Assembly: GCA_900473915.1 (NCBI GenBank)
Contig: UCNG01000007.1
Span: 122,254 to 186,253 of the forward strand
Direction: 5' to 3'
Source of the DNA: Hyphomicrobiales bacterium
Lineage (GTDB): Bacteria > Pseudomonadota > Alphaproteobacteria > Rhizobiales > Rhizobiaceae
Length of the DNA: 64,000 nucleotides
Shown piece after piece: positions 492-17,584 of this stretch. Both the position numbers and the translations under genes were made by a program. Position 1 is the stretch's first letter. Every line of letters begins with the position of its first letter. Below the pieces are notes generated by a model. That model saw only the letters and a list, made by a program, of their open reading frames with translations. It was not told the DNA's origin and searched no databases.

Positions 492-717
492 TACAGAGTG
501 CGGTTCGGATTGTAGCTAACACTAGAACGCGGTGAACCGAATTTTTGGTTCTCAGAGACACCTATCAGACCGAACATTACAAATAATATCGTTCTGCTCT
601 TGAACTTGCCAGATCCATGCACATTTGAAGAAATGCAGCGCCGGGCCCCTCTGGTCATGGCTACCGCTATGGCGATGTCGGGGCTGCTCCACTTGTTCAA
701 ATGGAGATGGTCCGGCG
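492..717 (+). promoter_or_regulatory. Structured leader upstream of the TerC/Alx gene
   Basis: About 225 bases separate the MtlR-like gene from the TerC start. The last 80 bases can fold: CGCCGG (639-644) pairs with CCGGCG (712-717) directly before the ATG at 718, GCCCC (645-649) pairs with GGGGC (680-684), and CATGGC (656-661) pairs with GCTATG (666-671). The GGAG ribosome site (703-706) lies inside the outer helix, so the fold could hide it. E. coli alx, a TerC relative, is controlled by a structured yybP-ykoY-type leader, but I do not see that motif's conserved GGGGAGUAG core here. A GAACC/GGTTC hairpin lies further up (534-551). Function is inference. Confidence 0.35.
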
Positions 718-14111: not shown

Positions 14112-14280
14112 CTTGGTTAAAAAACGGTTTATCCGGTCTATATGCGCAATGGTTAACAGATGGTTAATTTCTGAAGCCTGAATGATCCCGACAGCCAAGG
14201 CAGTCGGCTCTTTTTTGACACTCAGAGCATAACGATTGGATCCGCGATCCACTCCAGGCACAGAACGCAACATTGTACCC

Positions 14281-15500
14281 GTACGGAATGCCGAAATCGC
14301 TTCCAGCCGGGAAACGACTCAACTTTCTCTTGATTATAGCCGGATATCTTGACCGATAATTGCCGTATCTTCGCCCTTCCACAGAAGACGCAGCGGAAAA
14401 TATAAAATTAAATTTCAATCAAATATGACGTTACGTAATGTATTACAAATTTATAATATTTTTTTATTATGAGCTGCGGGGAGATAAGTTTAGGCATCAC
14501 TAAGAATAATCAAGCTTCCGCCACACTAATTAAAAGTATACTCTACTCTATTCACAATTTTTCTATACCTATCGAATGGGAAATCGGTATTTTCATGCCC
14601 TCCAGCCAGAGGCCTCATAAACAAACTCAAGCACAAAATTCGCGCCATCCCATCAAGAAACCTTCATCGCGGTGACGATGAATATAGCGATAGATCAATT
14701 GCTGTTTTCCGGTCGTCTTTTTGCTTCATCAAGCACAGCTATAGAGTGGTGCCTCTGCGCATTATCCAACGCAAAGCCGCTTCGCACTTTTGCTGAAAAT
14801 ACTCTAGCTGCAGCCGGCAAATTCTGCCGAAAACGCCCGAATACAAAATAAATCTTGGAAGGTTCCGCTCAAAGGAACCGCCTCGCGTTTGGGCGGGGGG
14901 CTTAGGGGCGCGAGGCGGGCGAGCTCTCAGGAGTGCACGCACTAGGAAAATGGAACGTTAGCTCCGATTCTGGAACTAACAATACGTTCCAGCGTGAAAA
15001 AATACGTGATTGCAGTGCAAAAAAGCCCGAATAGTTGGGGGAGGACCATCACGGATCACTGGAGTTCGCAATCTGTAACCCGTCGGCTCTGCTCGCTCAA
15101 TTCATAAGCTTGCAATGCTGATATGCACTGTCAACCGCACCCAAATTAAAAACCGCCTCGCAGCGAGTGAACGCGCTGAGGCGGCGTACCTCCTCCGAAA
15201 GCCCCCAATCGAAGAAGATGGCAGGAACTTACTCACAGCTTTGCCGAAAATAAATAGACAATTTATCGGTACACTTGAAAATCCGGTGAACAAATCGCCC
15301 AAGAGTTGAAGACCGCTCTCACTTCGAATTTTCCGCGTCGATATCTTTGGCGGGAGGCTCGGCTGAGGGATGACCCGTTTCCATTCTGCCGCGCATAGCT
15401 TCCACTGTGAGATCAGCTTGAGCTTTTTACCGCCTTCGCCCACAAACATACATAAATTTCAGTAATTTCTGAAAATTATAGAGTTTTATAAAGGGGTTGC
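14281..15500. other. Gene-poor, inverted-repeat-rich region
   Basis: No convincing protein gene lies here; short reading frames exist (for example 14469-14675 plus, 15102-15449 minus) but lack ribosome sites or recognisable similarity. The left part (about 14400-14640) is very AT-rich. Further on are several inverted repeats: GGTTCC/GGAACC (14861-14879), CCGCCTCGCG/CGCGAGGCGG (14878-14887 with 14909-14918), TGGAACGT/ACGTTCCA (14951-14958 with 14984-14991), and CCGCCTC(G)CAGCG with CGCTGAGGCGG (15153-15184). These could be small-RNA structures or remnants of repeats. Confidence 0.4.
14757..14806 (+). repeat. Rhizobial-type intergenic repeat, copy 1 (diverged)
   Basis: GCGCATTATCCAACGCAAAG followed by CCGCTTCGCACTTTTGCTG and AAAATACTCTAG matches the repeat at 63266-63371 and 27541-27580 with few changes. 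The upstream GAGTGGTGCCTCT may be the worn left arm. Confidence 0.6.
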
Positions 15501-15592
15501 TTTCTGAATGAGCGTGTTTATTGTTCCCTCCACTTGGAGGAGGGAGTACCGCCCCAGCGCGCTCGATCGCTGCGGGGCGGTTTCTTTTTAGC
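15501..15592 (+). ncRNA. Probable small RNA ending in a strong terminator
   Basis: A hairpin CCCTCC-ACTT-GGAGGAGGG (15526-15544) is followed at once by ACCGCCCC (15548-15555) and GGGGCGGT (15574-15581), a GC-rich terminator stem with a TTTCTTTTT tail (15581-15589). No gene on the plus strand precedes it within 1 kb, so the terminator most likely ends a short non-coding transcript that begins somewhere after 15400. The GGAGGAGG stretch is complementary to the CCTCCTCC loops of the array that follows. The 5' end is a guess. Confidence 0.45.
15548..15590 (+). terminator. Strong intrinsic terminator without an upstream gene
   Basis: ACCGCCCC/GGGGCGGT stem with an inner GCG/CGC pairing, followed by TTTCTTTTT. 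Orientation is plus by the T-tract. Confidence 0.75.
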
Positions 15593-15628
15593 TACCCGAA
15601 AATGCATATCTGCCTTGCAGCATTGCCC

Positions 15629-15656
15629 CTTGTAAGCGGCAACCCCTATCCCTATC
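15629..15656 (+). promoter_or_regulatory. Candidate RpoH-like promoter of the hairpin array
   Basis: CTTG (15629-15632) and CCTATC (15651-15656) are 18 bases apart and resemble the heat-shock sigma pattern (CTTG with a CC-A-T type -10). Initiation about seven bases later would fall at the base of the first hairpin (15665). CCUCCUCCC small RNAs in Rhodobacter are RpoH-dependent, which fits; the assignment is inference. Confidence 0.4.
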
Positions 15657-15662
15657 TTGGCG

Positions 15663-15787
15663 TTGTTCGGTTTTACTCCTCCTCCCAAAAACCGAACCCA
15701 AAGCGCGATACTCCTCCTCCCAATCGCGCTTTATAGATCCGCCCACTGCACACTCCTCCTCCCAGTGCAGTGGGCGTTCTCTTTTCT
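15663..15787 (+). ncRNA. Three-hairpin CCUCCUCCC (cuckoo/alpha-r14-like) small RNA array
   Basis: Three perfect hairpins stand in a row, all with the same 13-base loop ACTCCTCCTCCCA: arms GTTCGGTTTT/AAAACCGAAC (15665-15674 with 15688-15697), AAAGCGCGAT/ATCGCGCTTT (15700-15709 with 15723-15732), and CGCCCACTGCAC/GTGCAGTGGGCG (15740-15751 with 15765-15776). The stems share no sequence, only the loops do, so structure and loop are what is selected. The last stem is followed by TTCTCTTTTCT, a terminator-like tail. The loop is complementary to the Shine-Dalgarno core GGAGG. Alphaproteobacterial stress-induced small RNAs with exposed CCUCCUCCC loops (Rhodobacter CcsR, rhizobial alpha-r14) have this form. 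The arrangement is seen directly; expression is inferred. Confidence 0.8.
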
Positions 15788-15910
15788 GGCCTCTCCCCGA
15801 ACTCCTCATTGACTTTCTTCAATCCGAACTGATGATGCGCTGGCTCTTTCAGTTGTTTTAAGGGTTGAGGGATAATTTCGGTACTCGGCGCGACAGGGGA
15901 GCGGGGTTCC

Positions 15911-17584
15911 ATGTATTTCAGCAAGATTTTCAATTCCGCCAGGCGGGTGCACGGGGCGCCCTTGTTCTGGCTGGCTTTTGTTCTGCTCTTGCAGATCGTA
16001 CTTCTGTCGTTGAGGCTTAATGCGCCGATCGGCCCCATGTATTGGGACAGCTACATCTATTTTGATGCTGCCCAGCGCATAAGAATGGGGCAGATTCCGA
16101 ACGTGGACTTCTCCACCCCCGCAGGACCGCTTGGTTATTATCTGTTTGCGTGGGGACAAACCCTGTTTCCAAAAGCGCAACCGCTGTTGCTCGTTCAATG
16201 GTCCCTTTTGGCTATCGCGGCGCCTTTGATGGCATGGGTGCTGGCGCAGCTTCAACCCCGGAATCGGATGACCGGTTTTCTTCTTCTTGTTCCATTTCTG
16301 GTTTTCGCGGTCTTTCCGGCCAATACACAGAGCTTTTATCCCTATCCTGGATTGGATGGCTTCGGGATTTATAACCGCCACACGTCGCTTCTGCTTTACG
16401 TGCTGATATGCGGCCTGATGTTCATGCGTGACGGCGCGAAGCTTGCGCTTTTTTGCGCGGCAGCCATGCTTGCACTCTTCCTTATGAAGATTACGGGCTT
16501 TCTTGCAGGCGGCTTATTCGGTCTTGCGGCGCTTCTGGCTGGAAGAATCTCAATTCGCAGCGTAGCGCTGGCTGCTATGACCGCCATCACGGCGCTGTTA
16601 GCTCTGGAACTGAATAATGGAATTATCAGCGCGTATGTTCGCGATATCACGACATTGATCGCCTTGAATGAAGAGGCGCTATTGCCGCGCTTCCTCACCG
16701 TCATATCGTTGAAACTCGATGTCATCGTCCCGGCAGCGGTTCTCGTTCTGGCCCTTTTCTGGAGGGAGCAGCGCCTATCCGGAATGCAAGGCCGCTTCTT
16801 CGATCGGGGTTCCGTCTGGCTCGCCATCGGGCTTCTGGGCGGCGTCATTCTTGAAACGCAGAACACCGGCAGCCAGGAATTTATTTTTCTTTGGCCCATC
16901 CTGCTCATGATCTTTCAACGCGTGAAAGCCGGCAGCGAGAAGTTCAAGATCGTCTTCGTCACGCTTGCCGCCTTCTGTGTCATTCCGACTTTCACCAAGG
17001 TCACACACCGCACCTTGCGAGCCGTGGCCGTCGCGCCGACTTATGTTCAACCCTCTTTGCCGGAGCTGAAGAACTTGGGCCAAGTGCTTACGCGGCCTGA
17101 TTTCCTGAAGCGGGCAGAACTTTTCCAGTCCCATTATCCAGAGAACAATGCCGCCTATGACGTATTGGCCAAACAGGGCCAGCTACCCAGTTGGCAGCTT
17201 TATTCGGAAATTGACTTTCAGGTTTTCTGGCTCCTTTCTGCAAACCAGATGGTGGAGGATTTGAAAACCTTCGAAACCCGCAACAATATCCGCCTGCAAA
17301 GCATCATGTCGCTCGACTTCGTCAATCCGTTCGCCTGGATTTTGGACCGCGATGCCACACGGCATATCCAGATCGGCGCTGACCCGTTCCGCACGGTGCC
17401 TGCTCTGTCCGAACGAACGAAAGCCGCTGTGGAAGCAACCGATGGCATATTGCGCCCGAAATGTCCGACGACGACCAATCGCCTTGCCCTGCAGGAAATA
17501 TACGCCGAAGCGCTAAAGGATCGCTCCGTTATCGTTTTGAACCCATGTTGGGATTTGCTGCTTCGCCACGGTCTTATTCCGTAA
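15911..17584 (+). CDS. Polytopic membrane protein, GT-C glycosyltransferase-like
   Basis: A 557-residue protein with about ten to twelve transmembrane segments in the first 400 residues and a soluble C-terminal part of about 170. The first periplasmic loop contains MYWDSYIYFDAAQRI and PNVDFSTPAGPLGYYLFAWGQ, where acidic residues follow the first membrane segment as in GT-C enzymes that use polyprenyl-phosphate sugars; this likeness is of topology, not of a named family. The gene converges with the polyprenyl-phosphoryl-pentose locus (17596-24687), so it may be the transferase that uses that donor. GGGAG precedes the ATG at 15911. Its stop codon lies inside a hairpin shared with the aminotransferase gene. 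Confidence 0.55.
   Translation: MYFSKIFNSARRVHGAPLFWLAFVLLLQIVLLSLRLNAPIGPMYWDSYIYFDAAQRIRMGQIPNVDFSTPAGPLGYYLFAWGQTLFPKAQPLLLVQWSLLAIAAPLMAWVLAQLQPRNRMTGFLLLVPFLVFAVFPANTQSFYPYPGLDGFGIYNRHTSLLLYVLICGLMFMRDGAKLALFCAAAMLALFLMKITGFLAGGLFGLAALLAGRISIRSVALAAMTAITALLALELNNGIISAYVRDITTLIALNEEALLPRFLTVISLKLDVIVPAAVLVLALFWREQRLSGMQGRFFDRGSVWLAIGLLGGVILETQNTGSQEFIFLWPILLMIFQRVKAGSEKFKIVFVTLAAFCVIPTFTKVTHRTLRAVAVAPTYVQPSLPELKNLGQVLTRPDFLKRAELFQSHYPENNAAYDVLAKQGQLPSWQLYSEIDFQVFWLLSANQMVEDLKTFETRNNIRLQSIMSLDFVNPFAWILDRDATRHIQIGADPFRTVPALSERTKAAVEATDGILRPKCPTTTNRLALQEIYAEALKDRSVIVLNPCWDLLLRHGLIP

What the first reader, a model, noticed from the sequence alone, without database searches (positions are those of the whole stretch)
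15663..15787. Three tandem hairpins with the same anti-Shine-Dalgarno loop
Seen: three perfect stems of different sequence, 2 and 7 bases apart, each present the identical loop ACTCCTCCTCCCA, which is complementary to GGAGG ribosome sites. A U-rich tail follows and a CTTG-N18-CCTATC promoter lies in front. Known: CCUCCUCCC-loop RNAs ('cuckoo' RNAs, CcsR, alpha-r14) are stress-induced sRNAs in alphaproteobacteria, usually with two such loops. Inference: this is a member with three loops that could act as a polyvalent riboregulator or sponge for mRNA or protein.
Basis: partly seen in the sequence, partly recalled or inferred. Interest (0 to 1): 0.82.

Follow-up and report, generated by a model that had tools for sequence, protein, structure and literature searches.

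The report
Anti-ribosome-site RNA beside likely decoy RNA
The three hairpins are a known kind of bacterial regulatory RNA that blocks ribosome-binding sites, but just upstream lies an apparently undescribed, strongly conserved tiny RNA gene whose tip looks like a ribosome-binding site and could act as a decoy that soaks that regulator up.

Summary
In detail: three perfect hairpins carry the same loop ACTCCTCCTCCCA. This is an alpha-r14 sRNA: Rfam RF02344, 80.9 bits, cut-off 58.8, with covarying stems (18 of 35 pairs changed on both sides).

Upstream, at 15532-15589 (+), lies a second small RNA gene that matches no Rfam family at E<=1. It has a palindromic operator-like site, a -35/-10-like pair, a 5' end ACTTGGAGGAG and a terminator. 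A strong copy is in 29 of 35 genomes of the Brucella/Ochrobactrum genus. In 30 copies the 11-nt 5' end never varies; 0 of 23 neighbouring positions checked are invariant. GGAGGAG complements the alpha-r14 loops. In 28 of 29 genomes alpha-r14 follows; in one the small RNA stands alone. The palindrome recurs at a MarR-like/cydD-like locus and near a SCO1-like gene. Best reading: an SD-mimic sponge for anti-SD sRNAs. Expression and pairing are untested.

The parts
15658..15787 (+). alpha-r14 (NfeR1-type) sRNA gene: three hairpins with CCUCCUCCC loops and a U-rich tail
   Evidence: Rfam RF02344 15658-15780, 80.9 bits, cut-off 58.8; fold z -9.65; covariation
15665..15697 (+). hairpin 1, 10-bp stem, loop 15675-15687
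15700..15732 (+). hairpin 2, 10-bp stem, loop 15710-15722
15740..15776 (+). hairpin 3, 12-bp stem, loop 15752-15764; possibly also the terminator (inference)
   Evidence: not listed by the terminator scan, which allows loops of 3-8 only
15629..15656 (+). alpha-r14 promoter-like CTTG-N18-CCTATC
   Evidence: aligned across the relatives; not listed by the simple promoter scan
15602..15623 (+). conserved ATGCATATCTGCCTTGCAGCAT upstream of the alpha-r14 promoter; possible LysR-type (LsrB/VtlR-like) site
   Evidence: well conserved in the alignment except L155, where alpha-r14 is absent; resemblance to the published TGCA-N6-GCAT is loose in spacing
15532..15589 (+). candidate 58-nt SD-mimic small RNA: 5' ACTTGGAGGAG (15532-15542), terminator stem about 15549-15580, U-run 15581-15589
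   Evidence: 11-nt 5' end unchanged in 30 of 30 copies; model R1 at >=94 bits in 29 of 35 genus genomes; no Rfam match at E<=1 in 15400-15900
15497..15524 (+). promoter-like pair of the small RNA: TTGCTT-N16-TATTGT
   Evidence: spacer 16 nt in 30 of 30, distance to the A 7 nt (27) or 6 nt (3); not listed by the simple promoter scan
15457..15474 (+). operator-like palindrome TTTCAG-TAATTT-CTGAAA
   Evidence: 2-3 sites per genome in 7 of 8 genomes at up to one mismatch, reversed-pattern control 0 in all 8; also before a MarR-like/cydD-like locus and a SCO1-like gene
15143..15234 (-). second, diverged copy of the small-RNA unit, pointing the other way; the alpha-r14 that follows it in several relatives appears decayed here
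   Evidence: R1 39.8 bits

Best explanation
The locus holds two adjacent sRNA genes read in the same direction. (1) 15658-15787 is an alpha-r14 sRNA that, like S. meliloti NfeR1, most likely pairs through any of three equivalent CCUCCUCCC loops with Shine-Dalgarno regions of many mRNAs and blocks translation. (2) 15532-15589 is a roughly 58-nt RNA with its own regulated promoter; its largely single-stranded 5' end ACUUGGAGGAG imitates a Shine-Dalgarno sequence and is followed by little but a terminator. It most likely pairs with the anti-SD loops of the alpha-r14 copies (and perhaps of the AbcR sRNAs, which carry the same core) and takes them out of action when the palindrome-binding regulator, perhaps the MarR-like protein encoded with cydD, allows its transcription. 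Shown by comparison: the alpha-r14 identity, the conserved structure, the invariant 5' end, promoter geometry, terminator and shared palindrome. Inferred: transcription, the start site, which protein binds the palindrome, RNA-RNA pairing, and the direction of the effect. Separate estimates: alpha-r14 identity 0.97; small RNA is a real independently transcribed gene 0.85; it antagonises anti-SD sRNAs 0.5.
For: alpha-r14; NfeR1 mechanism PMC10746234 (passages). Small RNA: strong copy in 29 of 35 genus genomes; 11 of 11 positions of the 5' end invariant among 28 distinct sequences (30 copies, chosen by similarity of the whole 161-base element, none dropped), against 0 of 12 in the -35/-10 spacer, 0 of 5 before the start and 0 of 6 after; constant promoter spacing; no ATG/GTG/TTG shortly after GGAGGAG in 25 of 30, GTG at +3 in 5, so hardly a translation signal. 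GGAGGAG complements CUCCUCC; three CTCCTCCC loops lie downstream in 29 of these 30 copies, all three with the full ACTCCTCCTCCCA in 26. Mean duplex energy -18.0 kcal/mol with the alpha-r14 loop and -18.0 with the AbcR loop, against -12.5 with the 16S 3' end. 28 of 29 strong copies lie directly upstream of an alpha-r14 on the same strand, yet G009 keeps an intact small RNA with none beside it. A diverged copy changed its core to UGGGAGGA, which still matches the loop's UCCUCCCA (L125). Precedent: CrfA sponges the anti-SD siblings SisA-D in Caulobacter (PMC12559287, abstract and passages).
Against: No expression or interaction data were available. Any SD-like sequence would match anti-SD loops, so complementarity alone is weak evidence. 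One short site faces three redundant loops and 4-9 alpha-r14 matches per genome, so the stoichiometry is poor unless the RNA is abundant or pairing triggers decay. The conserved ACUU is not explained by the alpha-r14 loop. Several diverged copies keep GGAGAU rather than GGAGGAG and pair poorly with the loop: -7.5, -9.3 and -9.9 kcal/mol for three of six tested, and two of these are predicted to pair better with the 16S end. Outside the genus the motif is not enriched upstream of alpha-r14: 3 of 120 upstream, 3 of 120 downstream. The U-tail can partly pair with the 5' end (unpaired probability 0.66 with tail, 0.82 without). The simple promoter scan lists neither promoter. 6 of 35 genus genomes have alpha-r14 but no strong copy.
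Confidence: 0.52

Rival explanations
1. The upstream element is a real sRNA, but it regulates mRNAs, not alpha-r14; the invariant 11-mer is its seed for some messenger.
For: The whole ACUUGGAGGAG is invariant, and ACUU is not needed for alpha-r14 pairing.
Against: The exact 11-nt complement CTCCTCCAAGT has 9 sites in six genomes: 6 on the opposite strand of the gene itself and 3 others, against 7 for the reversed control pattern; two of the three others lie in related sequence but in opposite senses, the third is unrelated. Shorter or imperfect targets were not searched.
Confidence: 0.15
2. The element is not a trans-acting RNA but a second, regulated promoter plus attenuator for alpha-r14; read-through past the terminator adds alpha-r14 transcripts.
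For: 28 of 29 strong copies end 67-213 nt upstream of an alpha-r14 on the same strand (coordinates; tally).
Against: alpha-r14 has its own promoter-like pair; the terminator is strongly conserved; G009 keeps the whole element without alpha-r14 beside it; G012 has an insertion between the two; attenuation gives no evident reason for the invariant 5' end.
Confidence: 0.13
3. Only the alpha-r14 is functional; the upstream unit is an insulating terminator that was duplicated together with alpha-r14.
For: Diverged copies upstream of other alpha-r14 genes keep the terminator best.
Against: An insulator does not need a conserved promoter, operator and invariant 11-nt 5' end.
Confidence: 0.1
4. The small RNA is a decoy for 30S ribosomes or for a GGA-binding protein of the CsrA type.
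For: It carries GGAGGAG without a start codon in most copies.
Against: Pairing with the 16S 3' end is weaker (-12.5 against -18.0 kcal/mol; the 16S end was typed from recall); that this group lacks CsrA is recalled, not tested.
Confidence: 0.05
5. One reading: a novel three-loop member acting itself as a polyvalent sponge for mRNA or protein.
For: Three identical loops are present.
Against: Three loops are the published norm; NfeR1 acts by silencing target mRNAs at the ribosome-binding site.
Confidence: 0.05

Closest known systems
alpha-r14 family / NfeR1 (Rfam RF02344)
   Same: Three hairpins, an identical CCUCCUCCC loop in each, variable stems, sigma-70-like promoter with a conserved upstream element
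   Different: The NtrC site of S. meliloti is reported as not evident in Brucella homologues (PMC10746234); here the gene is paired with an upstream small RNA not found in the non-genus family genomes searched nor enriched upstream of other alpha-r14 sites
CcsR / cuckoo RNAs with DUF1127 (CIN1 locus)
   Same: Same loop motif
   Different: CcsR1 model below cut-off (26.2 against 65.3); no DUF1127 gene directly upstream, although other alpha-r14 copies in the same genomes do follow DUF1127 genes
CrfA sponge of SisA-D in Caulobacter crescentus
   Same: A separate, conditionally expressed sRNA that pairs with the anti-SD motif of a family of sibling sRNAs (PMC12559287, abstract and passages)
   Different: Targets are another family (alpha-R8); I did not compare CrfA's sequence; here the candidate is very short, lies next to a target gene and shares a palindrome with cydD-like and SCO1-like loci
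AbcR1/AbcR2 (alpha-r15, RF02345)
   Same: All 9 matches in the four genomes searched carry the same CCUCCUCCC core, so they are possible further partners
   Different: Different architecture; no alpha-r15 match in the window

Membership tests
alpha-r14 (RF02344) | Covariance-model score above the gathering cut-off | tested here: met
   80.9 against 58.8 bits, full length 1-123
alpha-r14 (RF02344) | Three hairpins each with CCUCCUCCC, stems varying with compensation | tested here: met
   18 of 35 pairs changed on both sides, 140 cells against 48.6 shuffled, 0 of 500; one of five measures (further pair types, 34 against 34.5) does not exceed its shuffles
alpha-r14 (RF02344) | Promoter like CTTAGAC-N17-CTATAT with a conserved upstream element, bound by LsrB in S. 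meliloti | tested here: inconclusive
   CTTGTAA...CCTATC and a conserved TGCA-containing element are present, but the spacing differs from TGCA-N6-GCAT; binding not testable
alpha-r14 (RF02344) | Silences mRNAs by pairing at the ribosome-binding site | not testable with these tools
   Known for NfeR1 (PMC10746234 passages); inferred here
CcsR (RF02791) / CIN1 | Model score above cut-off | tested here: not met
   26.2 against 65.3 bits
CcsR (RF02791) / CIN1 | DUF1127 gene directly upstream | tested here: not met
   None of the ORFs of >=25 aa at 14251-15990 looks like DUF1127 (read by eye). PF06568 search of three relatives finds no match near the matching alpha-r14: the nearest on the same contig are 36 kb away (G002) and 17 kb away (G018), none on that contig of G003
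Bacterial sponge RNA | Separate transcript with own promoter and terminator | tested here: inconclusive
   Conserved promoter-like pair, palindrome and terminator in 30 copies; transcription not shown
Bacterial sponge RNA | Accessible, conserved complementarity to the target sRNA seed | tested here: met
   Invariant GGAGGAG in 30 of 30 copies, three CTCCTCCC loops downstream in 29 of 30; mean unpaired probability 0.66-0.82. Not met in several diverged copies
Bacterial sponge RNA | Lowers activity or level of the target sRNA | not testable with these tools
   Needs experiment

The most novel reading that the evidence does not exclude
A minimal (about 58 nt) stand-alone Shine-Dalgarno-mimic RNA that neutralises a whole class of anti-Shine-Dalgarno sRNAs, encoded next to one of its targets and co-regulated through a shared operator with cydD-like and SCO1-like respiratory loci. 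In these genomes alpha-r14 copies would then often come with either a DUF1127 gene or an RNA antagonist as neighbour.
Probability: 0.45. Interest if true: 0.7.

Novelty: new variant of a known kind. Interest (0 to 1): 0.52.

Why it matters
Anti-SD sRNAs with redundant loops could silence many mRNAs; what restrains them is, as far as I saw, described only for Caulobacter CrfA (PMC12559287). A conserved SD-mimic RNA beside alpha-r14, sharing a palindrome with terminal-oxidase-related genes, would make that question directly testable and suggests a link between respiratory state and global translation control. It also shows that the adjacent sequence, not the striking hairpins, holds the new information.

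Tried and rejected
Rejected: (a) three loops as a novelty. (b) CcsR membership. (c) The upstream GGAGGAG as part of a small protein gene: a 27-aa frame MSVFIVPSTWRREYRPSALDRCGAVSF exists at 15508-15591, but its start codon and upstream part are not kept in the alignment, and no start codon follows GGAGGAG in 25 of 30 copies. (d) A conserved full-length 11-nt mRNA target. (e) Wider distribution: the exact pattern is in 5 of 297 family genomes, all five also among the 35 genus genomes (it missed genus member G018, whose copy has one changed base); the model is in 3 of 121, all genus (stricter filters). (f) The plasmid collection has no match to 15000-17000.

Weak points: one search matched only 6 of 30 copies because the pattern was too narrow; it was repeated correctly, but the duplex energies of the diverged copies come only. 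The alpha-r14 table was cut, so the 22 of 34 weak small-RNA copies counted as followed by alpha-r14 is a lower bound; at least two of the 12 counted as misses are followed by one (G018; G002 C2:792626). The 39 rows of the alpha-r14 alignment A3 were picked by having three CTCCTCCC, so loop conservation in A3 is partly by choice; the independent count is, on copies picked by the upstream element. A3 mixes orthologues and paralogues, and the structure tested came from one of its rows. In one search I dropped 8 of the 120 loci (Streptomyces, Bacteroidales, Actinobacteria, Cystobacterineae, Acidimicrobiaceae, Lachnospiraceae, Hungatella, Arthrobacter) as chance matches, and sites too near a locus end. 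One search covered the window and 55 of the loci then held. The protein called SCO1-like is named by eye; the N-terminal piece scanned gave no family. An earlier count gave loop positions one base too low; one search is right. Novelty in print rests on searches of an open-access library only, and on term look-ups in PMC9751625 and PMC12772402.

Full report
WHAT IS THERE. The three hairpins are as described: stems of 10, 10 and 12 bp without mismatch, 2 and 7 bases apart, each closing the loop ACTCCTCCTCCCA. The plus strand folds far better than shuffles (z -9.65, 0 of 200). The promoter-like CTTG-N18-CCTATC and the U-rich tail are present, though a simple promoter scan does not list that promoter.

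WHAT IT IS. The region 15658-15780 matches Rfam ar14 (RF02344) end to end at 80.9 bits, cut-off 58.8. CcsR1 is far below its cut-off. In 35 of 35 genomes of the genus reached through Brucella cytisi, ar14 is found above cut-off, with 4-9 matches each. An alignment of 39 distinct copies (orthologues and paralogues, picked by their loops) keeps 94.4% of cells paired, with 18 of 35 pairs changed on both sides and 140 such cells against 48.6 in shuffles; one of five measures, further pair types, does not exceed its shuffles. The founding member NfeR1 of S. meliloti is described as having three hairpins with identical CCUCCUCCC anti-SD motifs that act redundantly on target mRNAs; it silences ntrB through them, and homologues are named in Brucella (PMC10746234, passages). 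The Rhizobiales survey lists three- and four-hairpin families with this loop (PMC3927594, passages). The finding as given is therefore a known family member; three loops are its normal form.

WHERE THE EVIDENCE LED. The intergenic region upstream of alpha-r14 is not empty. Aligning the locus with B. cytisi, B. rhizosphaerae and O. teleogrylli showed conserved blocks upstream. A search of 35 genus genomes with window 15440-15600 found the element in 29 at E <= 6.2e-17, and a covariance model built from 19 copies found a strong copy (94.7-108.9 bits) in 29 of 35. Of the other six, three (G022, G027, G031) have only weak copies and three (G015, G033, G036) none at E <= 0.1.

ANATOMY OF THE SMALL RNA. 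Reading left to right: palindrome TTTCAG-TAATTT-CTGAAA (15457-15474); TTGCTT (15497-15502), 16 nt, TATTGT (15519-15524); 7 nt; ACTTGGAGGAG (15532-15542); a GC-rich terminator stem and U-run to 15589. In 30 of 30 copies (29 relatives and the window) the spacer is 16 nt, and the distance from TATTGT (or TATTTT) to the A is 7 nt (27) or 6 nt (3), which fits transcription starting at that A (inference). Among the 28 distinct sequences all 11 positions of ACTTGGAGGAG are invariant, against 0 of 12 in the spacer, 0 of 5 just before and 0 of 6 just after. The copies were chosen by similarity over the whole element, and none was dropped for its 5' end. No start codon follows GGAGGAG closely in 25 of 30 copies; the other five have GTG at +3. 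No Rfam family matches 15400-15600 at E <= 1.

LINK TO ALPHA-R14. GGAGGAG is the exact complement of CUCCUCC. Three CTCCTCCC loops lie downstream in 29 of the 30 copies, and in 26 all three are the full ACTCCTCCTCCCA. The AbcR sRNAs in four genomes of the genus carry the same CCUCCUCCC core. Mean predicted duplex energy is -18.0 kcal/mol with the alpha-r14 loop, -18.0 with the AbcR loop and -12.5 with the 16S 3' end (the 16S letters are recalled). Of 29 strong copies 28 are followed on the same strand by alpha-r14. In G009 the complete element persists with no alpha-r14 next to it, and in G012 an insertion separates the two; both argue against a purely cis role. A diverged copy before another alpha-r14 (L125) has UGGGAGGA in place of GGAGGAG, still complementary to the loop's UCCUCCCA.

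ITS REGULATION. The palindrome TTTCAGTAWTTTCTGAAA occurs two or three times, at up to one mismatch, in 7 of 8 genomes searched, with none for the reversed pattern. In B. cytisi and O. teleogrylli a site outside the small RNA precedes a MarR-like regulator (PF12802, 31.1 bits, cut-off 27, for B. cytisi) followed by a cydD-like gene (for B. cytisi the CydD match, 109 bits, is to a partial protein and below the equivalog cut-off of 435; the O. teleogrylli frames were read by eye). A one-mismatch site lies upstream of a SCO1-like gene in L254, L255 and L257; that name is my reading of its CxxxC-containing sequence (L255), not a profile hit. So the small RNA may share a regulator with respiratory genes (inference; binding untested).

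HOW IT MOST LIKELY WORKS. Shown elsewhere for NfeR1: the loops silence mRNAs at their ribosome-binding sites. Inferred here: the small RNA offers a free SD-like 5' end and competes for those loops, relieving targets. Caulobacter CrfA does this to the anti-SD siblings SisA-D (PMC12559287, abstract and passages), so the principle has a precedent in the same class. The problems are real: one site against many loops, no expression data, the unexplained ACUU, and diverged copies that keep GGAGAU rather than GGAGGAG and pair poorly (three of six tested, two of them better with the 16S end).

DISTRIBUTION. Exact pattern: 5 of 297 family genomes. Model: 3 of 121. All of these are genus members seen. 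Upstream of 120 alpha-r14 sites from the genome-contig scan (8 of 120 loci dropped as chance), 3 have GGAGGAG or GGGAGGA within 300 nt, and 3 of 120 downstream. Within what was searched, the small RNA is an innovation of the Brucella/Ochrobactrum genus. In the same genomes other alpha-r14 copies lie just behind DUF1127 genes (at least two each in G002, G003 and G018), as in the published CIN1 arrangement (PMC10253847, passages).

VERDICT. The reported feature is real but known (interest about 0.15 alone). The neighbouring small RNA is, as far as the searches here reach, undescribed and strongly conserved; as a candidate SD-mimic sponge it deserves follow-up.

Noticed in passing
window 15143-15234 (-) and 15037-15045 (-): A diverged, oppositely oriented copy of the small-RNA unit (39.8 bits). 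In several relatives an alpha-r14 gene follows it, making a divergent pair; in the window that gene seems reduced to a TCCTCCCCC remnant.
   Followed up: partly
L124, L198 and the minus-strand copies such as L121:1195-1284: Many diverged copies of the unit share roughly TTGGGGGCTTT-N-GNNGGAGAT rather than ACTTGGAGGAG; what this second class pairs with is unexplained.
   Followed up: no
window 633-690 (+): terC RNA (RF03067) at 51.1 bits, cut-off 39.9.
   Followed up: no
G002, G003, G018: At least two alpha-r14 copies in each of three genomes lie just behind DUF1127 genes, so many copies divide by partner: DUF1127 or the small RNA.
   Followed up: partly
L130 near 264-279 (B. cytisi genome): The cydD-like reading frame appears split into two frames; draft error or real was not checked.
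   Followed up: no
L254 344-1093 (-): A Stealth-type gene (PF11380) lies divergently beside the SCO1-like gene that carries the one-mismatch palindrome.
   Followed up: no
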